A DNA stretch of 64,000 nt, taken from the NCBI GenBank assembly GCA_002280565.1, contig NCEF01000001.1:1-64000 (forward strand). The letters run 5' to 3'. The DNA is from Sphingomonas sp. 32-66-10 (GTDB lineage Bacteria > Pseudomonadota > Alphaproteobacteria > Sphingomonadales > Sphingomonadaceae). Both the position numbers and the translations under genes were made by a program. Below are positions 5,754 to 40,376 of the stretch, one piece after another. Position 1 is the first letter of the stretch, and each line of letters begins with the position of its first letter. The notes beneath the pieces are model-generated. The model did no database searches. It saw nothing but the letters and a program-made list of their open reading frames with translations, and was not told the DNA's origin.

Positions 5754-6232
5754 TGGATATCGTGATCCGCGCCAGCGTGATGTTCGCGATCCTGTTCGGA
5801 CTGCTGCGCCTGATGGGCAAGCGCGAGCTGGGTCAGATGACGCCGTTCGAGCTGGTGATGCTGGTGGTGCTGGGCGATTTGATCCAGCAGGGGATCACGC
5901 ATAATGATTTCAGCCTGACCGGCGCGACGTTAGCCATCGCGACCTTTGCCTTTTGGGCGAGCGTGCTCGGCTGGGTCAGCTATCGCTGGCCGCGCGCGGA
6001 GCGGGCGATCGAGGGCGAGCCGCGGGTGCTGATCCGCGACGGGGCGTTGATCGAAGCGAATATGAAACGCGACCGGCTGACGCGGCGCGAGCTGGAATCG
6101 GAGATGCGGCTGGCGGGGATTGCTCATGTCCGCGATGTCGCCTGGGCGATCCTGGAGCCCGAGGGGCGGATCAGCTTCATCAGGCGCGGGGACGGCGAGC
6201 CCGCAAAGGCAGAGGATGCGCGGCCCGCGTAA
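5753..6232 (+). CDS. DUF421 (YetF-like) membrane protein
   Basis: A 159-residue protein with two or three N-terminal transmembrane helices containing the conserved FGLLRLMGKRELGQMTPFELV, then a small soluble DUF421 domain (EGEPRVLIRDG...RLTRRELESEMR). YetF/YkjA proteins are inner-membrane proteins linked to spore or envelope stress in Bacillus; the biochemical role is unknown. The start overlaps the stop of the preceding gene. Confidence 0.85.
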   Translation: MDIVIRASVMFAILFGLLRLMGKRELGQMTPFELVMLVVLGDLIQQGITHNDFSLTGATLAIATFAFWASVLGWVSYRWPRAERAIEGEPRVLIRDGALIEANMKRDRLTRRELESEMRLAGIAHVRDVAWAILEPEGRISFIRRGDGEPAKAEDARPA

Positions 6233-6253
6233 AGCGGGGGCGCACCCCGCCGG

Positions 6254-6352
6254 TCAGGCGATGAAGCCTGCCGACTGGGGTGCGATGGTGGTGACGACCA
6301 TGGCGGCGGTGAGGCCGATCGACACGAGCGCGACGAGAAGCTGACGAACCAT
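6254..6352 (-). CDS. tiny hydrophobic protein, paralogue 1 (32 aa)
   Basis: A 32-codon open frame beginning MVRQLLVALVSIGLTAAM and ending in a Pro/Ala-rich tail. GGGAG lies about eight bases before the ATG. It is one hydrophobic helix after a short basic start, and it resembles the next upstream frame at 6383-6493 in length, layout and the motif FT/LT..MV..T. The pairing, the ribosome site and the same strand support a real gene pair. Function is unknown; a membrane micro-protein is the simplest reading. Confidence 0.55.
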   Translation of the reverse strand: MVRQLLVALVSIGLTAAMVVTTIAPQSAGFIA

Positions 6353-6382
6353 TTTATCTACTCCCTGTGAGATTGCGGCGGG

Positions 6383-6493
6383 TCAGGCGACCGGGCCGAG
6401 GCTGACGGTGTTGGCGACCATCATCAGGGTGAAGGCAGCAGCGCCGACCAGAGCGACGGCGGAGCGGGCGAAGCTTTCGAAACGGAGTGCCAT
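6383..6493 (-). CDS. tiny hydrophobic protein, paralogue 2 (36 aa)
   Basis: A 36-codon frame starting MALRFESFARSAVALVGAA and continuing FTLMMVANTVSLGPVA. An AGAGGGA site precedes the ATG. It is the upstream member of a two-gene tandem with 6254-6352 and would be read from the sigma-54-like promoter at 6552-6567. It is a short single-helix protein with no recognisable domain. Proteins of this form are common, unnamed small products in sphingomonads. Confidence 0.6.
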   Translation of the reverse strand: MALRFESFARSAVALVGAAAFTLMMVANTVSLGPVA

Positions 6494-6551
6494 GATGTGT
6501 GTTCCCTCTTTGCTTCCCGGTGGATCATTCCGCCGGGGATGCCAGAAGGGT

Positions 6552-6567: not shown

Positions 6568-6661
6568 GTTTCGCTAAACCCTTGATTTAGCTGAACTTGC
6601 AATTTTGTTGCGAAGGAATCTGGGAAATTTCGCCAGTTGATATGGCGAATTTTACCAATGT

Positions 6662-7744
6662 TCAGCCGCCAATAATGCGGTTACGCCCGGCATGTTTGGC
6701 TTCGTACAGCTTGGAGTCTGCACGCGCGAAGCTGTCGGCGAGCGATTCGCCGATATGCACGCGGGTCAGGCCCGCCGAGAAGGTGACCTCACCGATCGGC
6801 AGGTCGGATTCGCGCAGCCGGTAGCGCTTCGATGCCACCATGGACCGGGCATGCTCCATGATGTCGCGCGCCTTGGCGATGCCGATGCCGGAAAACAGGA
6901 TCGCAAACTCCTCGCCGCCATGCCGCGCGACGAGGTGGCCCACACAGACTTCGCTCAGCGCCTGGGCGATGGTGCGCAGCACGCGATCGCCGACCGAATG
7001 CCCGAACCGGTCGTTGACCGATTTGAAGTGATCGACGTCGCACACCGCGATGCACAGCCGCGCACCGGACGCCTGCTGCGCGCTGAACGCTTCCTCGAAC
7101 GCCCGCCGGTTGGGCAATTCGGTGAGGGCGTCGCGGCGCGCATTGTCGCGGGCCTCTTCAAGCGCGCTGCGGAGTTCGCTCGCTTCACGGGTTGCGCTTT
7201 CCAGCTGCGATTCGGCGCGATGGACGCGCTCGAGCATTGCCCCGGTAATGCGCGACACTTCTTCGAGCGCGACGCCGGTCGGCCCGTCGCCTGACCGGCG
7301 GATCGCATCGGCGCTGGCGGCAAGATCGCGACCGAAGCCGGCGGTCTCGGCGCGCATCGCCTGGACCATGTCCTGAAAGCCCTCGACCTGCATCTGCGTC
7401 TTGGCGACGAGGCCGTCGACCTTCTCACGCGCCTTTGCAGCGTTCGCCGGCGGTTCGCAGCCAAGCGCTTCGATGTCGCGCTGGGTCAGCCGCACGCCGC
7501 CCTCGGTCATATGTCCAACCGCTTTGGCGAGCGCGCCGTCGGGATCGTGCAGCAAATGCCAGGCAAAGGCGAAATTGGCCGGGCTGGGTTCGAGCCGCTG
7601 GTCGAACAGGAAGGTGCCGATGCGCTCATACAACTGACGCGCCGCATCCCCGGCCTCGTCCGTACGTGACGCCCTCGCCAGCCTCACCAGCCTGTCCTCC
7701 GCCTTGCCCAAGCGCCCACCCATTGCGCGCTGCTCCGTCGCCAC
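6662..7744 (-). CDS. GGDEF-domain diguanylate cyclase
   Basis: A 360-residue cytoplasmic protein. Residues 1-195 are helical, with a likely coiled coil around AMLERVHRAESQLESATREA. Residues 200-355 form a GGDEF domain with LTELPNRRAFEEAF, DVDHFKSVNDRFGHSVGD and the active-site signature GGEEF. The RxxD inhibitory site five residues before GGEEF is absent, so product inhibition at that site is not expected. There is no membrane segment or recognised sensor. GTG 7744 is used; an ATG seven codons in (7723) is also possible. It makes cyclic di-GMP from GTP, by family knowledge. Confidence 0.88.
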   Translation of the reverse strand: MATEQRAMGGRLGKAEDRLVRLARASRTDEAGDAARQLYERIGTFLFDQRLEPSPANFAFAWHLLHDPDGALAKAVGHMTEGGVRLTQRDIEALGCEPPANAAKAREKVDGLVAKTQMQVEGFQDMVQAMRAETAGFGRDLAASADAIRRSGDGPTGVALEEVSRITGAMLERVHRAESQLESATREASELRSALEEARDNARRDALTELPNRRAFEEAFSAQQASGARLCIAVCDVDHFKSVNDRFGHSVGDRVLRTIAQALSEVCVGHLVARHGGEEFAILFSGIGIAKARDIMEHARSMVASKRYRLRESDLPIGEVTFSAGLTRVHIGESLADSFARADSKLYEAKHAGRNRIIGG

Positions 7745-28754: not shown

Positions 28755-29592
28755 CCGACGTCCCTGCTGAACGCACCAGATCATGGATACGCGCGACATC
28801 CGCCAGCAGCGATTCAAGCCGATCGAGCGGCCACACCGTCGCGCTGTCCGACCAGGCATTGGCCGGATCGGGATGGGTTTCGACAAACAGCCCCGAAATC
28901 CCCGCTGCAGCGGCGGCGCGCGACAGCAGCGGGATCCATTCGCGCGTTCCGCCCGACCGTCCGTTCGCACCGCCCGGGCTCTGCACCGAATGCGAAGCAT
29001 CGAACAAGGTCGGCAGCCCGGTCGCGCGCATCTTTCCCAGGCTGCGCATGTCGACGACCAGGTCGTGATAGCCAAAGCTGGTTCCGCGTTCGGTCAGGAT
29101 GACATGGTCGCTGGCCGCGCAGCCGGGGGGCAGCGCATCGCCGACCTTGGCCGCAGCATGGACCATATCGTCCGCCGCCATGAACTGGCCTTTCTTGATG
29201 TTGACCACCCGCCCGGTCGCGCCGGCGGCGCGGAGAAGATCGGTCTGGCGCGACAAAAAGGCCGGGATCTGGATGATATCGGCCACTTCCGCCACTGCCG
29301 CGACCTGCCCCGTTTCATGCACGTCAGTCAGCACCGGCAGCCCGATTTCGCGCTGAACGCGCGCCAGCACCGCCAGCCCTTCATCCAGGCCCGGTCCGCG
29401 CGGGCTGGCGCCGGCAGTACGGTTAGCCTTGTCGAAGCTGCTCTTGAAGATGACCGGGAGTTGCAGACGCGTGCCGATCCGCTCCAGTTCCTCCGCCACG
29501 CCCAGCGCATGATCGGCACTTTCGATGACGCATGGCCCCGCAACCACGAACAGCGGCCCGCTCGGCTCGACAGTAAAACGACCGATGCGCAC
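28747..29592 (-). CDS. kdsA: 3-deoxy-8-phosphooctulonate synthase
   Basis: A 281-residue (beta/alpha)8 enzyme that condenses arabinose-5-phosphate with phosphoenolpyruvate to Kdo-8-phosphate. It has FVVAGPCVIES, the FKSSFDKANRT loop, LTDVHETGQ, IQIPAFLSRQTDLL and FDASHSVQSPGG. GTG 29592 is chosen because GGGGAG lies five bases upstream and KdsA proteins start just before this strand; the longer frame to 29658 adds unrelated residues. It is the first gene of the capsule operon and lies next to the lasso island. Confidence 0.93.
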   Translation of the reverse strand: MRIGRFTVEPSGPLFVVAGPCVIESADHALGVAEELERIGTRLQLPVIFKSSFDKANRTAGASPRGPGLDEGLAVLARVQREIGLPVLTDVHETGQVAAVAEVADIIQIPAFLSRQTDLLRAAGATGRVVNIKKGQFMAADDMVHAAAKVGDALPPGCAASDHVILTERGTSFGYHDLVVDMRSLGKMRATGLPTLFDASHSVQSPGGANGRSGGTREWIPLLSRAAAAAGISGLFVETHPDPANAWSDSATVWPLDRLESLLADVARIHDLVRSAGTSDG

Positions 29593-29985
29593 CGTGACTC
29601 CCCGCGCCAATCCAGCGCAGCACTTTTGGGCATCGCAGTAGGCGTTCGCAACCAGCAATTTCCCGCTGCGCCTGCAAGCGCGACAGCGCTGTCTCGGAAT
29701 GCCACGCGTTCAACAGGTCGGTCCCGGCCACACCTGCCGGCCGCTGGCATCTGGACGAGGCGGTTGTGGAGATCGGTGCCAGGCGGACGGAACTGAGGCG
29801 CGCCGTCAATGATCAAGGCGAGGCGCTTGACGTCCCGGTGCCAGTGAATCGTCAGGTACGCGATTGCCATTGCCATCGTCGCCGGAGGCAGCCGCAAGCA
29901 AATGGGGCGTTTTCACTGGATGGCAGAGACGTCCGCCGGGCCTTCAGTCGCCATCCGTAGCATCTCCGCAGACGGCCCTTCAGGA
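29593..29985. other. gap between kdsA and the lasso precursor
   Basis: This 393-base gap holds no intact gene. On the plus strand it contains the transposase relic described at 29735-29959. On the minus strand, downstream of the precursor stop, only short frames without recognisable motifs occur. None contains the Cys-His-Asp pattern of a lasso leader peptidase. A weak hairpin with GGATGGC/GCCATCC arms follows the precursor gene. Confidence 0.6.
29735..29959 (+). mobile_element. relic of an IS6-family transposase
   Basis: One plus-strand frame reads GRWHLDEAVVEIG, then LRRAVNDQGEALDV. This matches the segment around the first catalytic Asp of IS6 transposases, usually WHLDE.vv.IgGkk..LWRAVD..GevLDvlVq. 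After a loss of similarity, a run of Arg (HRRRRQPQ), KQMGRF in the neighbouring frame and RDVRRAFSRH fit the conserved IS6 C-terminal order RRRER.M.RF...aQRFLs.H. The middle of the gene is missing and the frame is broken, so this is a dead, internally deleted copy. Terminal inverted repeats were not found. It lies at the left edge of the lasso island. Confidence 0.55.
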
Positions 29986-30147
29986 TCAGCTATGGAAGAC
30001 GGACACGTCCGATGCGCCTCCGATTGACCCGCCCTCGACCCGGCTGTTGAAGTCTTCGATGACCGGCTTCACCCAGGCGGCCTTTTCGAAGGCTTCGTCG
30101 TCCTGGGCTAGCATGCTGTGGGCGTGCGAGGGCTCGGTCACGGACAT
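29986..30147 (-). CDS. lasso-peptide precursor (A protein), 53 aa
   Basis: A 53-codon gene. Residues 25-30 read WVKPVI, matching the leader recognition motif YxxPxL bound by B1 proteins. The C-terminal part is GGSIGGASDVSVFHS from Gly39. Asp47 would be residue 9 of a core that begins at Gly39, allowing a nine-residue macrolactam ring; a start at Gly40 would give an eight-residue ring. The position two before the core is Val37 or Glu38, not the usual Thr. The last residue is Ser, the site phosphorylated in paeninodin-type peptides, and a matching kinase gene is nearby. F51 and H52 could serve as plugs. AAGGA lies two bases before the ATG, rather close. It is the second gene after B1 on this strand. 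Confidence 0.72.
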   Translation of the reverse strand: MSVTEPSHAHSMLAQDDEAFEKAAWVKPVIEDFNSRVEGGSIGGASDVSVFHS

Positions 30148-30198
30148 ATCCTTCGATGTGGCTTCACCGCCAAGGCATGCATGATGAGCGCTATCGGG

Positions 30199-30268
30199 TC
30201 AAGTCGCCCGCGACAGGCATGCCAGCCAGGACGAGCAAAGCACCGGCCCCTCAGGGCCCGGCGCGCGC
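30199..30268 (-). terminator. hairpin between B1 and the precursor gene
   Basis: Just after the B1 stop the minus strand reads CCGGGCCCTGAGGGGCCGG, able to fold into a short GC-rich hairpin, without a T-run. It may partly end B1 transcription or protect the end of its message. The rest of the 121-base gap shows no gene. Confidence 0.3.
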
Positions 30269-30646
30269 TCAATCCCGGATCGTCACCAGCTTGCGGTCAA
30301 CCAGCGATACCACGAATTCCTCAACGTCGTCCCGACATTGGTCGAGCCCGACATCGTATCGCGCGGCGAGCCCAGTAACCAGCTGCCCGAGGGTCCGGGG
30401 CGAAGCGAGCTGCGCCCAGATGACGGCGCTGGCTGCCGCAATCACATGGAACCGGCCTGTGTCGACGGACATGATAACGGTTTCGTTGTCAATGACCGCC
30501 GAGGCGTTGCCCCCGACGCGGGTGATAATCGCGTTATCTGAAAGAGTTCGTCTCAGAATGTTGCCTGTCCCTCGCTGCCGAGCGCGATGCCCGATCGCGC
30601 GTCTTCGCCTATGCCGTCTTGAAAGCCACGCCGCAACCACGGGCAC
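30269..30646 (-). CDS. PqqD-like lasso B1 protein (leader recognition element)
   Basis: The region from about residue 31 is a PqqD-type winged-helix domain: AVIDNETVIMSVDTGRFHVI, then SAVIWAQLASPRTLGQLV, and RDDVEEFVVSLVDRKLV at the end. In lasso clusters such stand-alone domains (B1) bind the leader and hand the precursor to the peptidase and cyclase. The start is uncertain. The ATG at 30646 adds about 30 very basic residues (RRHRRRRAIGHRARQR) not expected in the family; no other ATG, GTG or TTG lies closer. A rare ATT start eight bases after GAGGGA, at about 30554, would give a normal 95-residue B1. It is divergent from the cyclase gene. Confidence 0.72.
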   Translation of the reverse strand: MPVVAAWLSRRHRRRRAIGHRARQRGTGNILRRTLSDNAIITRVGGNASAVIDNETVIMSVDTGRFHVIAAASAVIWAQLASPRTLGQLVTGLAARYDVGLDQCRDDVEEFVVSLVDRKLVTIRD

Positions 30647-30761
30647 GACCCTGGATCAGCCCTCGACGCCGGGTCCAGCAGTTTAGGGGTGGCGACGGAG
30701 CGATGCCTGCATGTATGACGGGTCGGTAACACGCCTTATTTGCCCCGTTGGGAGTTCACGC

Positions 30762-32675
30762 TTGCTCTGCGGTACCGTATGCCTTTCGGGCCCTGGAGGC
30801 GATGAGACCAGCGGCGTGGAGCGAAGTCTCAATGGGATGACGCCGGGGCGAAACTGGAAGCGGGCTGTCCGCTCAATCGGCCCGGCGAGCTTCGGGGCCA
30901 TTCTGCCCAAGGGCGATTGTCCCGGCGGTTCGCACTTACGGGTGCGGGACGATCTGATGATCGTCTGCGACTCCGACCTGCACGATCTCGAGGCTCTGCA
31001 TCTTGCTCTTGGGGGCGATGCCTCTGCGACTATCGATGCACCCGACGCGGAATGGCTGCTCCGGGCGTATCAGGCCTGGGGTGAGGATTGCCCGCGTCAC
31101 CTGCTTGGTGAGTTTGCTTTCGCCATCTGGGATTCGAAGAAGCGTCGCCTGTTCTGTGCGACGGATCCGATGCGCCGGCGGGTCCTGTATCGCCACATCG
31201 ACGGCGACCGGTTGACCTTCGCCTCATCACCCCACGCCTTACTGGCATTTTCCGGGGTCGACAGGTCACTGAATGAACTGGCGATGGCAGAGTTTCTGGC
31301 CGCGAGCGTCTATTCGATCGATCAAGGCACCACCAGTTTTTATCAGGGTATCGATCAGCTGCCCGGTGCGACATGCTTCATCTTCGATGATGAGGGTGTT
31401 CGCATGAACGAGTACTGGTCGCCGGAGTCGGTGCCGGAGACGAACCTTGATGACTCGGCTTGCGTCGCGGAATATCGCCGACGTCTGATACAGGCGGTCG
31501 ATCGCCATATGGCGTCAGGGCGCCAGTTTGGAGTTATGCTGAGCGGCGGCTTCGACTCAACTGCGGTAGCCTGTATCGCCGCACGACGTCTCGCCGGCGA
31601 GGGACGGCGTCTGATCGGGATCACGGCCGCCTTGCCGGAGGATCAGGCTGACGTCGCGCGCGATTCTCGCCGCCACGCCGAGATCGTTGCCCGGTTCCTG
31701 CCCAACATGGACCTGCATGTCATCACGCTTGACGAAGAGGATGTGGTGGCGCGGCCGGAACGCGAGTTCAATATCCTGCATCGCCCATCGGGCGGGTTCG
31801 AGCGCCGGTTCGCCGCGGTCGCGGCCCACGCGGCCAAACTGGGCGTTGATGTCCTGCTGACCGGATTTGGTGGCGACCAGTCGGCCACCGCGCGCGGCGC
31901 GGGGTATTGTTCTGACATGTTGCGGCGTGGCCAATGGCGAAACCTGATCGTTGAGTGCGTCGCTCGCGGACGGGAGCAGAAATGCTCGCCCTGGCGGATC
32001 CTGGTGCACCAGGGATTAGTCCCCCTGATCCCTGAACCCCTATGGCGAAGGTATCGGGCTATTCGGTTGGGGCGGCGCCTCCCTCTAGCGCTCGGAACCT
32101 GCCGGGCCGAATATGCGGTCGAGGCGGGCGCGATGGAACGCCTCGAAATGGCGCCACTTGCAAGCTGGCGGCCACAGCCGACGATCCGAGGGCAGTCGCA
32201 GTACGGCCTGCGGTACATCATGCGGAGTGGAAGCATTACGCCAATGGACCGGCTGTCGCTGGCCTCGGGTGTGCGGCTGCGGCACCCGATGTTCGATAGG
32301 CATTTGATCGAGTTCGGCCTGTCGCTTCCTGCTGAGCAACATGTCCGAAACGGTCGGCGGCGCCACATCATGCGCCAGGCCGGCATCGGCTTGATGCCCC
32401 CCCAGACCCTGTCCCGGGCCGACGGCAGCGACTCGGTCATGCCGGACTTTCTGGAGCGGATGATTTCTGCCGGGCCGGCGATGATCAAGGAGTTGGACGT
32501 CCTCGAAAGAAATCCTGCCGTTAACCGCAGGGTTGATTTCCCGCGATTGCGCGCCCTGATCAGCGGCTATTCAGCCGCGCAGCCCTCGCGCCGCGCCCGA
32601 CAAGACGCGCAATATGTACTACGCGGCTACAACGCGGCGCAGTTCATCGCCTGGTTCGAGCGTCGGAATAGCTGA
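30762..32675 (+). CDS. asparagine synthetase-like lasso cyclase (C protein)
   Basis: A 637-residue protein of the AsnB family. The N-terminal glutaminase-like domain has LCGTVCLSG at its start and GEFAFAIWDSKKRRLFCATD. The synthetase domain has the ATP loop SGGFDST at about residues 261-267 and TGFGGDQSATARG, where lasso cyclases have GxGGD. Lasso C proteins adenylate the ring Asp/Glu side chain and close the macrolactam. TTG 30762 is preferred: GGGAG lies seven bases upstream and the product then begins with the first domain strand. ATG 30711 would add 17 residues with only a weak site. Its neighbours (B1, precursor, kinase) support a lasso role over asparagine synthesis. Confidence 0.85.
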   Translation: MLCGTVCLSGPGGDETSGVERSLNGMTPGRNWKRAVRSIGPASFGAILPKGDCPGGSHLRVRDDLMIVCDSDLHDLEALHLALGGDASATIDAPDAEWLLRAYQAWGEDCPRHLLGEFAFAIWDSKKRRLFCATDPMRRRVLYRHIDGDRLTFASSPHALLAFSGVDRSLNELAMAEFLAASVYSIDQGTTSFYQGIDQLPGATCFIFDDEGVRMNEYWSPESVPETNLDDSACVAEYRRRLIQAVDRHMASGRQFGVMLSGGFDSTAVACIAARRLAGEGRRLIGITAALPEDQADVARDSRRHAEIVARFLPNMDLHVITLDEEDVVARPEREFNILHRPSGGFERRFAAVAAHAAKLGVDVLLTGFGGDQSATARGAGYCSDMLRRGQWRNLIVECVARGREQKCSPWRILVHQGLVPLIPEPLWRRYRAIRLGRRLPLALGTCRAEYAVEAGAMERLEMAPLASWRPQPTIRGQSQYGLRYIMRSGSITPMDRLSLASGVRLRHPMFDRHLIEFGLSLPAEQHVRNGRRRHIMRQAGIGLMPPQTLSRADGSDSVMPDFLERMISAGPAMIKELDVLERNPAVNRRVDFPRLRALISGYSAAQPSRRARQDAQYVLRGYNAAQFIAWFERRNS

Positions 32676-32738
32676 TGTGGCAGTGGTTGCGGTCCAAACC
32701 GTTTGTTGCGAGAGCCCTTGGACAATGAAGGCGTCGTA

Positions 32739-33662
32739 ATGTTCCACTACCGTGTTTCCGGACTTACGGTCGCCAGCGAACAGCTCCTGCCGGGACTGAT
32801 CGAATCCGGTGCGGGCGATCATAGGTCGGATATTCACATCCGGCGCGGGGCTGTTCCGGAAGCGCTGGATGGCGTGACACACGCAGGCCCGAGCTGGCAG
32901 TTGGCAGGCAATCGCTTCCTGCTCAGTATCCCCAATGTCCTGCGCATGCTCCTGATCGACGGCCGTGAAATTCTGTTTGAGCCGGACCCGGGCGCAGCCG
33001 AAGGCGACGAGGCGATCTTCTTGAGCGGATCGGGCATCGGCATCCTGATGCAGCAGCGTGGGCGGGTCGTGCTGCACGCCAGCGCCGTCAAGGTCAACGA
33101 TCACGCTGTCCTGTTCTGTGGTCCTTCTGGAGCGGGCAAATCGACCCTGGCCGTTGCCCTTGGAAAGCTTGGTTACCCTTCGGTCGCCGATGATTTCTGC
33201 TGCCTGACCATGGAAGACTCGGTTGCCTGGCTGGAGCCGGACGGGCGGCAGCACAAGCTTTGGGGGCAGGCGATTGAAGCGTTGGACATCGCCGATCGAA
33301 GACTGAACCCGATCCGCTCCTCGCTCCAGAAATACTTCGTCACCGCCCCGGGCGCTGTTGAAGGCCCGATGCCGGTGGGCATGGTCTATGAGCTACATGC
33401 CGCCACGCCCTCCCAGCCGTCGGGCATCCAGCGGCCGAGGAGCATTGATGGCGCACATCTTGTGCTTCGCAACGCCTACAGGCCCGCCTTGATCCATCAT
33501 TTCGGCCAGCGCCAGCTCTACTTCGACGCTGCGGCGGCCCTGATGGCCGGCGGCCGGATACAGAAGTTCACCCGAGCAATGAATTTCGAGGCGGTTCCCG
33601 CATCCCTGCACGCACTTGAAGCACATTGGCGCGCCAACGGACTGCTGGCAGGCGCCGCCTGA
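32739..33662 (+). CDS. HPr kinase-like lasso precursor kinase
   Basis: A 307-residue protein with the C-terminal HPr kinase/phosphorylase fold. VVLHASAVKVNDHAVLFCG leads into the P-loop GPSGAGKST at about residues 128-136, followed by SVADDFCCLT with the catalytic Asp pair. Such proteins in lasso clusters (PadeK, ThcoK) phosphorylate the C-terminal Ser of the precursor; this precursor also ends in Ser. ATG 32739 follows GAAGG at a good distance; a TTG 12 codons upstream is less likely. The stop overlaps the sulfotransferase ATG (TGATG). A role in carbon control is unlikely because no HPr gene is near and the protein lacks the N-terminal domain of true HprK. Confidence 0.85.
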   Translation: MFHYRVSGLTVASEQLLPGLIESGAGDHRSDIHIRRGAVPEALDGVTHAGPSWQLAGNRFLLSIPNVLRMLLIDGREILFEPDPGAAEGDEAIFLSGSGIGILMQQRGRVVLHASAVKVNDHAVLFCGPSGAGKSTLAVALGKLGYPSVADDFCCLTMEDSVAWLEPDGRQHKLWGQAIEALDIADRRLNPIRSSLQKYFVTAPGAVEGPMPVGMVYELHAATPSQPSGIQRPRSIDGAHLVLRNAYRPALIHHFGQRQLYFDAAAALMAGGRIQKFTRAMNFEAVPASLHALEAHWRANGLLAGAA

Positions 33663-34561
33663 TGCGCAGCGTGTGGCTCGCGTCCTATCCCAAGTCAGGC
33701 AACACCTGGCTTCGTATTCTCTTGGCCAATCTGCGTCAGGATCAGCCGGTCGACATCAACCGCTTGCCAGGAGATCGCGGCATCGCCAGCGCACGCAAGC
33801 CCTTCGATGATCTGATGCTGTTTCCGTCCGGGCTGCTGACGCATGAGGAATGTGAACGCTTGCGCCCCCTGGTGCATGCGGCGGTTGGACGCGGGCGCGG
33901 CTATATCGATCCGGCCCTGACGCCGCCGCCCCGGATCGGAGAAACCCAATTCATCAAGACGCACGACGCCTGGTTGCCAACTTCTGATGGCGTGCCAGTC
34001 ATGGGTGGCTGCGACGCCGCCGACGGGGCGATTCTGATCGTTCGCGATCCCCGCGATGTGGCGGTGTCGTTAGCCCACCACATGGGCACCGATCTCGATA
34101 CGACAATCAATTTCCTGACCAGCGAGACGGCGGCGCTGTGCGGCCGATGTGATTTTCAGCCACAGCAATTGCGGCAAAGATTGACGTCCTGGGCCGGGTT
34201 CAACGCGAGTTGGCTGGATCAGAAGGAACTGCCAGTCCTGATGATACGCTACGAGGACATGAAGCGCGATCCGGTCGAGGTGCTGATCGCCGCCCTAGAC
34301 TTCGCTGGGCTTCCGGCCACACGGGCCGAGGCGGAACAGGCAGCCAGCTTCGCGACCTTCGAGGTGCTTCGCGACCAGGAGCAGAGGCAGGGCTTCCGCG
34401 AATCCCCCACCAGGGGGGCGCCGCGGGCCTTCTTCCGGCGCGGTGTTTCGGGCGGCTGGCGCGACGAGCTGACCGCCGACCAGGTCGCGCGGATCGAGCG
34501 ATCCCAGTCAGCGGGAATGCTGCGACACGGCTATGCGCAAAGCAGTGTCGACCTGCCCTGA
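33662..34561 (+). CDS. PAPS-dependent sulfotransferase
   Basis: A 299-residue Sulfotransfer_1 protein. The 5'-phosphosulfate loop YPKSGNTW is at residues 9-16 and the 3'-phosphate motif RDPRDVAVS starts near residue 128. VLMIRYEDMKRDP and the C-terminal FFRRGVSGGWRDELT (the RKG.vgdW-like site) complete the family pattern. The likely catalytic His is in FIKTHDAW. It is coupled to the kinase gene by a one-base stop/start overlap, so it most likely modifies the same product. The core peptide has no Tyr; its acceptors would be Ser residues or an unknown partner. Sulfation of the neighbouring capsule is an alternative. Confidence 0.85.
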   Translation: MRSVWLASYPKSGNTWLRILLANLRQDQPVDINRLPGDRGIASARKPFDDLMLFPSGLLTHEECERLRPLVHAAVGRGRGYIDPALTPPPRIGETQFIKTHDAWLPTSDGVPVMGGCDAADGAILIVRDPRDVAVSLAHHMGTDLDTTINFLTSETAALCGRCDFQPQQLRQRLTSWAGFNASWLDQKELPVLMIRYEDMKRDPVEVLIAALDFAGLPATRAEAEQAASFATFEVLRDQEQRQGFRESPTRGAPRAFFRRGVSGGWRDELTADQVARIERSQSAGMLRHGYAQSSVDLP

Positions 34562-36170: not shown

Positions 36171-37786
36171 CTGGGCATCGCCGCGACGATCTGCGGATCG
36201 ACCGCATAATCGCGGGCAATCTCGCGCGCCGTCATCTTGGCGGACATCATCACCGACGGCGTGCCGCCGCCCGGCTGCGTGCCCTGTCCAACGAGGTACA
36301 GGTTGGACACGTCCTCGCTGCGGTTGTGCGGGCGGAAAAAGGCGGTCTGGGTCAGTCGAGGTTCGACGCCGAAGCCATTGCCGGCATAGGCGCCAAGTGT
36401 CTGCTCGAAATAGTCGGGGGTGACAAAGCTGCGATAGACTAGTCGTTCGCGCAGGTCCGGGATGTAACCGCGGTCATCGAGGAAATTTAGCACCTTCTCT
36501 GCAAACCCCTCACCCACCGCGTTCCAATCCACATCGCCGAGCGTGTTGGGCACCGGGATCAGCGTATAGGCTGCATGATGCCCCGGCGGCGCTAGGCTCG
36601 GGTCGGTCAGCGTCGGGATATGAAGGTATTGCGAAAAATCCTCCGCGAGGATCTTGCGCTCAAAGATATCGGTCAGCAGGTCTTCGTAGCGCGGCCCGAG
36701 GATGATGTTGTGGTGCCGCAGATCGGGGTCGCCGTCGCGCTGTTCATAGCCGAAATAGATTACCATCAGCGACATGCTCTGCTTGCGGAACTTGACCACG
36801 GCGTCGCGATTGACCCGTCGGTGCGCCTTGTCGATCAGCTTGAGATAGGTGGTCGCGTAATCGGCGTTGGAGACGACAAGGTCGGCCGTCAGCGTCTCAC
36901 CCGAGGCGAGCGTCACGCCGGTCGCGACACGCTTGCCCGCGCGCTTCTCGACCTCGATCCGCGCGACTTTGGCATTGAGTTGCAGCGTGCCGCCCAGTTC
37001 CTCGAACTTGACGACCAGCGCGCGGACCAGCGCGCCGGTGCCGCCGATCGCATAATGGACGCCCCAGGTCTTCTCGACGAAATGGATCATCGCATAGATT
37101 GCAGGCACCTTGAGCGGGTTGCCCCCGATCAGCAGCGGTTCGAAGCTGAACACCTGCCGCATCTTGTCGCTTTTGAAATATTTGCTGACCAGCGAGAATA
37201 GCGGCTGGACCGCCCCGAGCTTGAGCAGGTCCGGGACAACCTTGAGCATCGATCCCAGGCTGCCGAAATAGGTGTAACCGAGTTCGAGGAAACCGCGCTG
37301 AAAGATCGCGCGCGCGGCCTCGTGGAAGCGCTCATAGCCCTCCAGATCCTCGGGCGCGAGCCGCGCGATCTGCGCGCGGACGTTTACCGGGTCGGCATCG
37401 TAATCGAAGAAGCTGCCGTCGTCGAAATAGATGCGGTAGAACGGCAGAACCGGCACGATCTCGACATAGCGGCTGGTGTTGGGGCCGCCGCTGAGGCCGC
37501 TCACAATGCGCTGCCCGTCGCCCAGCACCTCTTGCGGAAAGTCGGGCGCCGTCAGCATCGCGGTGTCGCGTTCCAGCGCGAACAGCTCCTCAATGAAATG
37601 CGGCACGGTCAGCACGGTCGGGCCCATGTCGAAGGTAAAGCCCTCGGCGCGCCGGACATAGGCACGCCCGCCGACATCATCGAGCTGTTCGACGATGCGG
37701 GTGTCGAAGCCGAGGCTTTGCAGGCGGATCGCGCAGGCAATGCCGCCAATACCGGAGCCGATCACGATCGCTGTACGACGGGTCAT
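36167..37786 (-). CDS. crtI: phytoene desaturase (CrtI family)
   Basis: A 539-residue carotenoid desaturase. [20 protein letters not shown] binds [16 protein letters not shown] and YRIYFDDG are typical CrtI segments. The C-terminal signature [19 protein letters not shown] is plain. It converts phytoene to neurosporene or lycopene by family knowledge. It is the last gene of the light module and overlaps the blh gene by four bases (blh stop 37783, crtI ATG 37786), which implies co-translation. Together they supply carotenoid and retinal. Confidence 0.92.
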
Positions 37787-38742
37787 GAAATCGCTGTCTT
37801 TCCTTGAGAGATGGGGGCGGTGGTCAGCCGCCGTTCGAGCCACCGCGAGAGCAGCAGATGCGGCACCGCGACCGATGCCAGCAGTTGAAATGCCTGCGCG
37901 ACCATGATCGGGTCGATGCGCGCGGACGCCATGGTGCGCAGCCCCAGCCAGCCAAGGATGGCGAGGCCTGACAGCAGCGCGCCGGTGCCGAGCCATCGCG
38001 CCGGCGTCATATCGTGCAACCGGGCGCGCGCCTGCGTCAGGTGCCGGGGTGAATGTAGGAACGCGAAAAACAGCGCGAAACCCATGACTGGCGGCAGGAC
38101 CACCAGCAAAACGAGACACAGGGTCATCGCGGTGGCCCAGGACAGGCTGCCATCGCGCCACGCTAAAGCGATGCCGACCGCCGTGACCAGCAACGCGACG
38201 GGCGCCGCCGCGGTGATGATCTGCGCGAGCACTGCTGCGCGCGGATCGCTCATCGCGACGAACAGCGCCGCAACCTCGTCAGGATGGCCGATCGTCGCCG
38301 CCGCAATCACCGCCGCGCCCGCAGCAACCCGCAGCAGCGGATCCTCAAGCATCAGCCAATCCTCGCCGAAGTGCACCGCAGCCGCCGCAAGGAACAGGAT
38401 CAGCGCGGCGAGCGGCACGCTAATCCACAAGAAGACCATCAGCATCGCGATCATGGCATAGCCGCCCACGACCAGACAGAGACCGGCGCGGTCCAGCGCG
38501 ACCGAACGCCGCAGCAAGGCGATGTCATAGGCGCCGTGCGGCAGCCCGCCGCCGATGAACACGATGGTTGCAATTCCCACTGCCGCTGGATGGTCCAGCG
38601 GCACGCCGAGCAGCGTCACTCCGATCAGCAGCGCCGCGGCGAACCAATAGGCCGGATACACGACGTCGCCGCGCCCGATCGGGGCACGGCGACGCGTTGA
38701 CGTGGGTGGGTAAGCCAGTGCTACCATCGGATCAGGCAGCAT
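37783..38742 (-). CDS. blh: Brp/Blh-type beta-carotene 15,15'-dioxygenase
   Basis: A 319-residue integral membrane protein with eight or nine helices. The iron-binding His-containing motifs of Blh are visible: [23 protein letters not shown] and FLHSPRHL. Blh cleaves beta-carotene to two retinals, the chromophore of the rhodopsin encoded just upstream. ATG 38742 overlaps the end of the rhodopsin gene; ATG 38727 is an alternative without overlap. Confidence 0.9.
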
Positions 38743-39505
38743 AGCCCTTGTGCCCACCGGCCTCGGCTTCGGCCTCCGACTTGCGGACCGCGATCAGGAA
38801 GATCAGGATTCCCAGACCAGCCTTCGCGACGATATCCGCGATCGTGTAGCCGACCTGGATCGTCGTGGTGACGGTGCCACCGCTCAGGCCGGCATAGGGG
38901 GCCATGTACACGATCGGGTAGAAGCCCCACGAGGCAAAGGTCAACAGGCGTGCCTTGCGCACCAGGTTCTGGGCACTGGCCGGCTGTTGCGCGATCGACT
39001 TGCCGAGCCCGCTGAACAGCTCCCACACAATGTACACGAACGGGATCGCCGACAGGGTGCCCCACAGGACGCGCGTCGGGATGTCGGTCGAGATCTCGCC
39101 CGGATAGCCCAAAATGATCATCAGCGCGGCCGCCGAGCCGAGCCGGACCGACTTGGACATGGTTTCCTCACGCGACAGGCGCATGACCAGCACCAGCTCG
39201 ATCAGCAGCAACGGCACGGTCAGCAGCCAGTCGACGTAGCGATAGGCATCGTTGAACGCGAAGGGGGTTGCGGTGACGACACCGTCGCCGAACGTATAGG
39301 CGGCGATCCAGCTCTCGAAGATGCGCCAATAGTGATAGGCGGCGATAGCGGTAACCAGTCCGGAAATGGTCAGCGCGGTGCGATACGCCGGGGCCACTTG
39401 CGACCGGCTCAACCACAGAAACGCCGTTGCCGCAGCCATTGTCGCAAAGGTGAACGAAAAGGCGTTGTAGATCAGGGAATATTGAAAGGGTGTCACGATA
39501 TCCAT
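38732..39505 (-). CDS. light-driven proton-pump rhodopsin, xanthorhodopsin-like
   Basis: A 257-residue seven-helix retinal protein. Helix C reads RYVDWLLTVPLLLIE: Asp92, Thr96 and Glu103 are the DTE triad of outward proton pumps. Leu100 matches the green-tuned position 105 of proteorhodopsin. His58 is in AAYHYWRIF and Lys228 in DIVAKAG binds retinal. Helix E has LWGTLSAIPF; Gly149 aligns with Trp138 of bacteriorhodopsin, the Gly that makes room for a carotenoid antenna in xanthorhodopsin. GGAGG five bases before ATG 39505 fixes the start. It heads a rhodopsin-blh-crtI operon. Confidence 0.93.
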   Translation of the reverse strand: MDIVTPFQYSLIYNAFSFTFATMAAATAFLWLSRSQVAPAYRTALTISGLVTAIAAYHYWRIFESWIAAYTFGDGVVTATPFAFNDAYRYVDWLLTVPLLLIELVLVMRLSREETMSKSVRLGSAAALMIILGYPGEISTDIPTRVLWGTLSAIPFVYIVWELFSGLGKSIAQQPASAQNLVRKARLLTFASWGFYPIVYMAPYAGLSGGTVTTTIQVGYTIADIVAKAGLGILIFLIAVRKSEAEAEAGGHKGYAA

Positions 39506-39752
39506 TCGAGCCTCCATCGCATTCGGCCACGGCACGGGTAGGCCGGGCAGCATGGTGCGGGATGTCGCTCCCCAAGATTGAGACGCCCTCCATCCCCGAT
39601 ACATCGTCACAGCACCAGCAATGAAACGGGTGTCCAGCCGCAGACCAAATGACCAACGGACTATGGCAACGCCGCTGTGACGATGGGGTTGGACTAGAAT
39701 GGGGCAGGATTTCTGGCGATACGGGCTTTGTGCCGTAGGCCTGAACGGGCGT
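39506..39752 (-). promoter_or_regulatory. promoter region of the rhodopsin operon
   Basis: A 247-base gap between the LOV-HTH gene and the rhodopsin gene with no coding frame that looks real. On the plus strand at 39641-39656 it holds a short direct repeat, GACCAA spaced by two bases, within CAGACCAAATGACCAA. On the minus strand this reads TTGGTCATTTGGTCTG. It is a possible regulator site but weak on sequence alone. The rhodopsin operon must be read from here or from the LOV-HTH gene. Confidence 0.4.
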
Positions 39753-40376
39753 TTACAGACCGGCCTCAACGGCAAGCCGAATAAGGTCCGCGGTCGTGTG
39801 CAAACCGAGCCGGTTCATCAGAATGGCGCGGTGCATCTTCACCGTCTTTTCCGCCAGATCCAGCTCCGCTGCGATCTGCTTGTTGAGCAGGCCGTTCGCG
39901 ACGAGCTTGAGCACCTGACTCTGGCGTGGGGACAGCGCCTTGACCATCTCCGCCGCGCGGATGCGGCGCATGCTCGACGGTGTGGCCGCCCCGGCATCGA
40001 TCTCGATCTGCGATCCCAGGAAATACAGCAAGGCGTCATTCTCGTCATAGATTGGCGCGACGAGCACGGCGTTGCGAAACGGTTCGCCGCTGCGCTTGTA
40101 GTTCAGAATCTCCACAAGCACCGGGCGATGCTCACGCACGCCGCGACGGATTTCCTCGGTCAGCCACGGCTCGGTCGCCGGACCGGACAGGAAGCGGCAG
40201 TTGCGCCCGACCACATCCTCGATCTGATATCCGGTTAGTGCGCAGAATGCGTCGTTACAGGCGATGATCGGATTGTCCGGCAGCCGTGGATCGCTGATCA
40301 CCGAGGCAATCGGGCTATCGGCGACCAGTCGAAAATGTCGATCTGCTGAGGGCAGAAGGTCGAGCCCTTGGGTCAT
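39753..40376 (-). CDS. LOV-HTH blue-light transcription regulator (EL222-like)
   Basis: A 207-residue protein. Residues 14-130 form a LOV/PAS domain with the flavin-adduct motif GRNCRFLSG (reactive Cys60) and [13 protein letters not shown]. Residues about 145-207 are a LuxR-type helix-turn-helix ([22 protein letters not shown]...[14 protein letters not shown], quoted in two parts). EL222 of Erythrobacter has the same order: blue light frees the HTH, which dimerises and activates transcription. It lies directly upstream of the rhodopsin-blh-crtI operon on the same strand, which suggests light control of that operon. Confidence 0.92.

What the first reader, a model, noticed from the sequence alone, without database searches (positions are those of the whole stretch)
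29986..34561. Lasso-peptide cluster combining a kinase and a sulfotransferase, with no peptidase, exporter or isopeptidase in view
Seen: a 53-residue precursor-like gene, a PqqD-like B1, an AsnB-like cyclase with SGGFDST and GFGGD, an HPr-kinase-like protein and a coupled PAPS sulfotransferase, arranged divergently as A-B1 leftwards and C-K-sulfotransferase rightwards. Known: lasso synthesis needs A, B1, B2 and C, and HPr-kinase-like proteins phosphorylate the C-terminal Ser in the paeninodin group. Inferred: this locus makes a doubly decorated (phosphate and sulfate) short lasso peptide. That combination, in a sphingomonad with A after B1, is unusual.
Basis: partly seen in the sequence, partly recalled or inferred. 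Interest (0 to 1): 0.85.

Follow-up and report, generated by a model that had tools for sequence, protein, structure and literature searches.

The report
Kinase-sulfotransferase lasso cluster, peptidase broken
A bacterial gene cluster that should make a small knotted peptide decorated with phosphate and probably sulfate has lost its own cutting enzyme, apparently to a jumping gene; the same kinase-sulfotransferase pair recurs in lasso clusters of other alphaproteobacteria and is worth testing.

Summary
Precursor A and B1 run leftwards; cyclase C, HprK-type kinase K and PAPS sulfotransferase ST run rightwards, ST starting on the K stop codon. C groups with lasso cyclases, apart from asparagine synthetases. 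The core GGSIGGASDVSVFHS is identical in an 85%-identical cluster of another MAG (L002).

The peptidase-less cluster is a damaged one: L002 has B1-A-B2; the window keeps only a short 5' piece of B2 beside an IS6/IS240-type transposase fragment. One intact B2 lies on another contig, and a second K-ST-B1-C cluster elsewhere in the genome.

K+ST is no oddity: in 385 alphaproteobacterial genomes at least 30 of 52 K hits have ST directly downstream. Of 32 precursors I picked from K+ST loci, 30 end in Ser; 21 of those lack Tyr. 12 of 29 such loci with C show no B2 (one is a 4.5-kb contig). HPr kinase and sulfotransferase in lasso clusters were noted in 2014, function unknown.

Verdict: new variant of a known kind. 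Phosphorylation is likely; Ser sulfation and B2 in trans are inferred.

The parts
29986..30147 (-). Precursor peptide A; probable start GTG 30141; leader WVKPVI motif, predicted Val(-2) Glu(-1), predicted core GGSIGGASDVSVFHS with ring Gly1-Asp9
   Evidence: core identical in L002; start by comparison with L002; leader/core border inferred
30269..30562 (-). B1, PqqD-type RiPP recognition element (long ORF to 30646; true start unsure)
   Evidence: nearest solved chain 9x90_B, lasso PqqD chaperone, E 1.2e-10
29842..29954 (-). Remnant of the 5' end of leader peptidase B2 (right border from the alignment to L002); the part with the catalytic Cys and His is gone
   Evidence: blastn and three-frame reading against L002; intact L002 B2 6589-7113(-)
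29742..29831 (+). Fragment of an IS6/IS240-type transposase gene next to the B2 remnant
   Evidence: 74% identity over 90 bp to the L002 transposase gene at 5947-6537, which is Pfam DDE_Tnp_IS240
30762..32675 (+). C, lasso macrolactam synthetase (AsnB-like); TTG start, aligned to an ATG in L002
32739..33662 (+). K, HprK-type lasso peptide kinase; LHAS, GPSGAGKS and ADD motifs present
33662..34561 (+). ST, PAPS-dependent sulfotransferase, start sharing one base with the K stop; YPKSGNTW, KTH, RDPRDVAVS and FFRRG motifs present

Best explanation
This is a lasso-peptide cluster of an alphaproteobacterial class marked by a kinase gene followed directly by a sulfotransferase gene. B1 binds the WxxPxI leader of A. 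K phosphorylates the linear precursor, most likely at the C-terminal Ser15. ST, made from the overlapping next gene, adds sulfate to a Ser hydroxyl of the same peptide. A B2 peptidase removes the leader and C closes Gly1 on Asp9. The local B2, which once followed A, is truncated beside an IS6/IS240-type fragment, so the cluster can work only if a B2 from elsewhere (the unlinked copy on contig C16) serves in trans; otherwise it is on its way out. Shown: gene identities, open frames, purifying selection on A, C, K and ST since the split from L002, the broken B2, the unlinked B2, the recurrence of K-ST. Inferred: the modification sites, sulfation of the peptide itself, that the IS caused the loss, B2 in trans, production.
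For: Family matches. Same cluster in L002 with B2 intact, 85.4% nt identity over 4,723 bp, flanks not alike. B2 remnant plus IS fragment. Unlinked B2 with Cys and His regions kept. K-ST adjacency in at least 30 of 52 K hits of the class sample; the 19 best STs are all paired with K, 12 of them not used to build the model. In 33 fetched loci with ST just downstream of K, 29 hold C, and all 29 hold B1. STs paired with K separate from 20 K-less STs of the same survey with 2 changes on the tree. 30 of 32 picked precursors end in Ser. Nearest solved STs are Teg14 and Teg12, StaL lower down, glycopeptide sulfotransferases (recalled). APS kinase, needed for PAPS (recalled), in 12 of 12 other K+ST genomes searched, one of them a weak partial match. 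No speed-up on the window branch: C 4 v 5, K 0 v 3, ST 4 v 2, B1 1 v 0 changes.
Against: No APS kinase was found in this genome (the MAG is 83% complete). B2 is broken and B1 shows Ka/Ks 0.59, so the cluster may be dead. The unlinked B2 is only 42% identical to the L002 B2. Nothing shows that ST acts on the peptide. Val at -2 is not the usual Thr, though Ile/Val(-2) is reported for Sphingomonadales with kinases (PMC10368454; abstract, passages, sections 24 and 26 read). The K profile was built only from ST-paired kinases, which favours paired hits; 22 of the 52 K hits had no listed ST beside them. Of 13 precursors picked beside K without ST, only 7 end in Ser, so C-terminal Ser does not follow K as such.
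Confidence: 0.68

Rival explanations
1. The cluster is a dying relic: after B2 was lost nothing is made, and the other genes have simply not decayed yet.
For: B2 truncated beside an IS fragment; unlinked B2 only 42% identical to the L002 B2; B1 Ka/Ks 0.59.
Against: The other frames are open; Ka/Ks 0.14-0.17 for A, C, K, ST (which averages over the time before the loss too); no clear excess of changes on the window branch (few sites); an unlinked B2 exists, and 12 of 29 K+ST loci with C have no B2 hit (the window and the 4.5-kb contig L037 are among the 12).
Confidence: 0.35
2. The sulfotransferase does not modify the peptide but another molecule (a surface glycan or lipid), and sits beside K by operon chance.
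For: The window lies next to capsule genes; K-less relatives of ST occur widely, some in tandem.
Against: K-linked STs separate from K-less ones on the tree; ST lies directly downstream of K in 33 fetched loci, with the reverse order in L025; nearest solved relatives act on peptide antibiotics (substrate recalled).
Confidence: 0.15
3. ST acts on a phosphorylated C-terminal Ser or depends on it (a relay), rather than on a second, independent Ser.
For: ST follows K, often with overlap or a short gap; the C-terminal Ser is the one hydroxyl site shared by 30 of 32 precursors; all 19 best STs are paired with K; in pseudomycoidin a second enzyme works on the Ser phosphate (PMC8498205, passages).
Against: 29 of the 30 Ser-ended precursors have other Ser/Thr; a phosphate-sulfate anhydride is labile (recalled); sites outside the core end are known (BsfK acts on Ser3, PMC10368454).
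Confidence: 0.2
4. C is an ordinary asparagine synthetase and A a chance frame.
For: C scores below the curated lasso cut-off.
Against: The tree places C with lasso cyclases, not with AsnB; A is conserved with an identical core.
Confidence: 0.02

Closest known systems
Paeninodin / SyanK-ThcoK group of phosphorylated lasso peptides
   Same: A, B1, C and HprK-type kinase; precursor ends in Ser; the Sphingobium yanoikuyae SyanK system is proteobacterial (PMC8498205 and PMC9266682, passages read; the Zhu 2016 JBC paper is not held)
   Different: ST directly coupled to K; here B2 is broken; leader ends Val-Glu
Ile/Val(-2) kinase lasso clusters (bsf of Bradymonas sediminis)
   Same: Split B1/B2, kinase, Ile/Val at -2, also reported in Sphingomonadales (PMC10368454)
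   Different: BsfK acts on Ser3 and BsfA ends in Asp; the word sulfotransferase does not occur in that paper's main text; here both Ser3 and a C-terminal Ser are present
Lasso clusters with HPr kinase and sulfotransferase genes, mainly Gram-positive
   Same: Both genes noted in some lasso clusters in 2014 (PMC4289311, one passage, which does not say whether in the same cluster); a sulfotransferase gene in Firmicutes clusters (PMC8498205 citing Zhu 2016c)
   Different: There the sulfotransferase is said to lie at the start of the cluster; no K-ST overlap and no alphaproteobacterial class described in the passages I read
Linear polyphosphorylated peptides (LPP), PMC13381572 (abstract and passages)
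   Same: HprK-type kinase plus RRE
   Different: No macrolactam cyclase and an SpI-type peptidase; here C is present and conserved
Teg12, Teg14, StaL sulfotransferases
   Same: Among the nearest solved sequences to the ST profile
   Different: Act on glycopeptide aglycones (recalled), not in a kinase-coupled lasso cluster

Membership tests
Lasso peptide cluster | Precursor A with leader motif [Y/W]xxPx[L/V/I] and Asp/Glu at core position 7-9 | tested here: met
   WVKPVI; Asp9; core border inferred
Lasso peptide cluster | B1 recognition element (PqqD type) | tested here: met
Lasso peptide cluster | C macrolactam synthetase distinct from AsnB | tested here: met
Lasso peptide cluster | B2 leader peptidase in the cluster | tested here: not met
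   Only a remnant; one intact unlinked B2 in the genome. So: a lasso cluster that has lost B2, not a complete one
Lasso peptide cluster | Threaded, isopeptide-bonded product | not testable with these tools
   needs mass spectrometry
Phosphorylated (paeninodin/SyanK) lasso group | HprK-type kinase with P-loop and catalytic His/Asp | tested here: met
   LHAS, GPSGAGKS, ADD in the window row of alignment A2
Phosphorylated (paeninodin/SyanK) lasso group | C-terminal Ser in the precursor | tested here: met
Phosphorylated (paeninodin/SyanK) lasso group | Phosphate transferred to that Ser | not testable with these tools
   needs enzyme assay; Ser3 is a rival site
PAPS sulfotransferase family (PF00685) | 5'-phosphosulfate loop, 3'-phosphate site, catalytic His | tested here: met
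   P10, S12, G13, T15, W16, H101, R128, S136 invariant in 14 of 14; roles recalled
PAPS sulfotransferase family (PF00685) | PAPS supply in the host | tested here: inconclusive
   No APS kinase found in the 83%-complete MAG; present in 12 of 12 other K+ST genomes searched, G392 only by a weak partial match
Asparagine synthetase B | Clusters with true AsnB | tested here: not met

The most novel reading that the evidence does not exclude
Alphaproteobacteria hold a large, undescribed class of lasso peptides made by a fixed kinase-then-sulfotransferase relay that puts phosphate and sulfate on Ser hydroxyls (Ser O-sulfation in a RiPP, not Tyr), with one leader peptidase shared across several scattered clusters of a genome; the window shows a cluster whose own peptidase became dispensable and was lost to an insertion element.
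Probability: 0.3. Interest if true: 0.72.

Novelty: new variant of a known kind. Interest (0 to 1): 0.52.

Why it matters
If the ST sulfates the peptide, this would be a sulfated lasso peptide; my searches (listings, with passages of a few papers) showed none, and a 2022 review of unusual lasso modifications has no word beginning with 'sulf' (PMC9266682), but most subscription papers are not held. Because 21 of 30 Ser-ended cores lack Tyr, it would be a Ser/Thr peptide O-sulfation system with a kinase partner, testable with short substrates. Clusters without B2 in genomes that hold one elsewhere make 'which peptidase serves which precursor' directly testable, and warn that cluster-by-cluster mining will call such loci incomplete.

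Tried and rejected
True asparagine synthetase: rejected by the tree. The ORF 29328-29897(-) as a complete B2: no Pfam family and only one weak NCBIfam match to an unrelated family (E 0.39); comparison with L002 shows a B2 piece running into an IS fragment. Tyr sulfation as the general rule: 21 of 30 Ser-ended precursors of K+ST loci have no Tyr in the predicted core (borders set by hand). Ser3 as the common site: not shared by all cores. Conserved surroundings of the unlinked B2: only B2 itself matched in seven other B2 regions (E 1e-10). Relaxed evolution on the window branch: not seen, but few sites. Loci L003-L007 from the genome scan are distant AsnB-like hits, used only in tblastn checks and the tree.

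Rows dropped before counts. K+ST loci in which I found no convincing precursor: L037, L054, L061, L063, L072, L075, L079 (7 of 34). For K without ST, 7 of 13 picked precursors end in Ser; the near-copy L091_6365 was left out, some borders are doubtful, L090 also holds an ST-like piece some 5 kb away, and for L081-L084, L087 and L089 I picked none. In one search I entered 52 of the 57 K rows (the five weakest left out) and 47 ST rows, whose list was itself capped; so the 30 pairs are a minimum, and L079 shows one more pair. All STs with E below 1e-94 were entered. One search counts L061 twice, so 38 pairs, not 39. The ST tree left out hits under 600 bp or weaker than 1e-25; the C tree left out hits under 1.5 kb or with stops. 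No structure prediction was run. My note gave the K/ST overlap, the remnant's right border and the orphan B2's neighbour less exactly than here.
Full report
What is there. Between a DAHP-synthetase-type gene (KdsA-like, recalled) with capsule genes on the left (Capsule_synth, glycosyltransferase, ABC2_membrane) and a fasciclin-domain gene on the right, the window holds a 53-codon frame A and a PqqD-type B1 on the minus strand, and C, K and ST on the plus strand. Pfam and NCBIfam name B1, C and ST clearly and K weakly; K carries the LHAS, P-loop and ADD motifs of lasso kinases (motif roles from PMC10368454). ST starts on the last base of the K stop, so the two are probably translated together (sequence).

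Is it a lasso cluster? C scores 271 bits against the NCBIfam lasso cyclase and 171 against asparagine synthase, both below curated cut-offs. On a tree of 52 proteins the 45 cyclases from lasso-type loci, the window's among them, and one unclassified cyanobacterial homologue sit behind a branch with 99% SH-aLRT support; the genome's own AsnB-like protein and E. coli AsnB (chosen outgroup) lie outside. The closest relative, L002 (MAG titled Caulobacter sp., JAUXTQ010000038.1), has the same genes in the same order, 85.4% nt identity over 4,723 bp, with no alignment in the flanks apart from the IS fragment. The 15-residue core is identical. Pairwise Ka/Ks is 0.14 (A), 0.59 (B1), 0.14 (C), 0.17 (K), 0.14 (ST). 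B1 is the odd one; it is short and its Ks is low.

The missing peptidase. In L002 the gene after A is an intact B2. In the window the matching DNA stops at 29842 after a broken 5' piece, and ten bases further on a 90-bp stretch matches an IS6/IS240-type transposase gene. The break lies inside a 184-kb contig, not at an end. The genome (MAG, 83% complete, 83 contigs) has one PF13471 match, on contig C16, with the Cys and His regions kept, 42% identical to the L002 B2. In the first 40 kb of C16, which hold it, my tblastn showed no A, B1, C, K or ST. The same MAG carries a second K-ST-B1-C set on the 4.5-kb contig C70, with no precursor seen there. Whether the C16 B2 serves either cluster is not known.

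How common is kinase plus sulfotransferase? In 298 genomes of the family, 10 (own included) had a C match at E 1e-40 or better. Of the 9 relatives, 5 have ST directly after K near C (L020-L024), one (L025) has ST before a K, about 5 kb from C, two have K without ST (L026, L027), one neither (L028). In 385 genomes of the class, 97 had an ST-profile match (E 1e-20) and 28 a K-profile match (E 1e-15). All 19 STs with E below 1e-94 are paired, 12 of them not seeds of the model. The seeds were all ST-paired, which biases the ranking. Of 33 fetched loci with ST directly downstream of K, 29 hold C and all those hold B1; the other four are L059, L068, L069 and the contig-end locus L079. Named examples: all 4 plasmid records with an ST match have K beside it (Tistrella mobilis pTM3 and pTM1, Hyphomicrobiales UR115, Thalassobaculum sp. 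OXR-137), and 3 of the 4 have C and B1, pTM1 not at that place. That the class is Alphaproteobacteria follows from these records, whose coordinates match genomes in the sample. On the ST tree the K-linked STs (34 with C or B1, 4 without) and 20 K-less STs need only two changes of label.

What the precursors say. From 27 of 34 K+ST loci I picked 32 precursors and set core borders by hand. 30 end in Ser; the two exceptions share one locus, L080, which has two divergent K genes. 29 of 32 have Asp/Glu at 7-9. Position -2 is Thr in 24 of 32 and Val in the window and L002. 21 of the 30 Ser-ended cores have no Tyr; 29 of 30 have other Ser or Thr. Beside K without ST, 7 of 13 picked precursors end in Ser. 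The window core offers Ser3, Ser8, Ser11 and Ser15 and no Thr or Tyr. So the C-terminal Ser is the shared mark, as in the paeninodin/SyanK group, and sulfation as a rule cannot be on Tyr. The nearest solved relatives of the ST profile are Teg14 and Teg12, with StaL lower in the list. PAPS supply: APS kinase in 12 of 12 other K+ST genomes, one weakly, not found in the MAG.

B2 elsewhere. 12 of the 29 loci with C lack a B2 hit in the fetched stretch (my B2 profile rests on four sequences), among them the window and L037, a 4.5-kb contig. For the other ten I checked PF13471 genome-wide: none lies in the locus; nine of the ten are in genomes with PF13471 elsewhere, and one genome (G302) shows none. 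G337 has one B2 and two K+ST clusters, unlinked to both. A B2 outside the cluster is therefore frequent in this class, which makes the window's loss survivable in principle; some of these B2 genes sit beside other lasso clusters (for example L053), and which precursors they serve is untested.

Mechanism and confidence. Lasso cluster: about 0.95. B2 broken, with the IS fragment beside it: about 0.9 (assembly fault possible). K on the C-terminal Ser: about 0.65 (Ser3, the BsfK site, is the rival). ST on the peptide: about 0.6. B2 in trans and product made: about 0.4.

What is known. HPr kinase and sulfotransferase genes in some lasso clusters were mentioned in 2014 (PMC4289311, one passage) and a sulfotransferase gene in Firmicutes clusters in a review (PMC8498205, passages). 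Proteobacterial kinases are known (SyanK; PMC8498205, PMC9266682, passages). Ile/Val(-2) leaders with kinases in Sphingomonadales are in PMC10368454 (abstract, passages, sections 24 and 26). PMC13381572 (abstract, passages) describes linear HprK peptides; PMC10885120 (passages) gave nothing on sulfation of lasso peptides. I saw no description of the alphaproteobacterial K-ST class or of a sulfated lasso peptide in searches (listings only, except the papers named; one search found no paper). The library lacks most subscription papers, including Zhu 2016, so this is weak evidence of absence.

Noticed in passing
L037 (own genome, contig C70) 444-4447(-): Second lasso cluster in the same MAG: K, ST, B1 and C in one direction; no precursor seen on the 4.5-kb contig.
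   Followed up: partly
L002 12831-17067; L057 4093-7864: The relative carries a second K+ST cluster (B1, K, ST, divergent C and A) right after the first, then a cluster with K, B1, B2 and C without ST; IS6/IS240-type transposase genes lie near the clusters.
   Followed up: partly
L020-L025: K+ST clusters of the family also carry Asp/Asn beta-hydroxylase genes (PF05118 in L020, L023, L024, L025) and further sulfotransferases (L021, L022 Sulfotransfer_3; L024 Sulfotransfer_2): perhaps more tailoring than phosphate and sulfate.
   Followed up: partly
L059, L068, L069: Tistrella-type loci with precursor, K and ST but no C or B1 nearby; on the same plasmid as L059 another locus about 36 kb away (L086) has B1, K and C. 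Modification and cyclisation genes may be split across the replicon.
   Followed up: partly
L064 1-20000: Three K-ST pairs, three cyclases and two B2 genes within 20 kb.
   Followed up: no
L080 8168-14075: Two divergent K genes beside one ST, with precursors ending in Val and Pro instead of Ser.
   Followed up: no
window 37783-40376(-): Bacteriorhodopsin-type gene next to a beta-carotene dioxygenase gene and a PAS plus LuxR-type regulator: a rhodopsin with what looks like its own retinal supply.
   Followed up: partly
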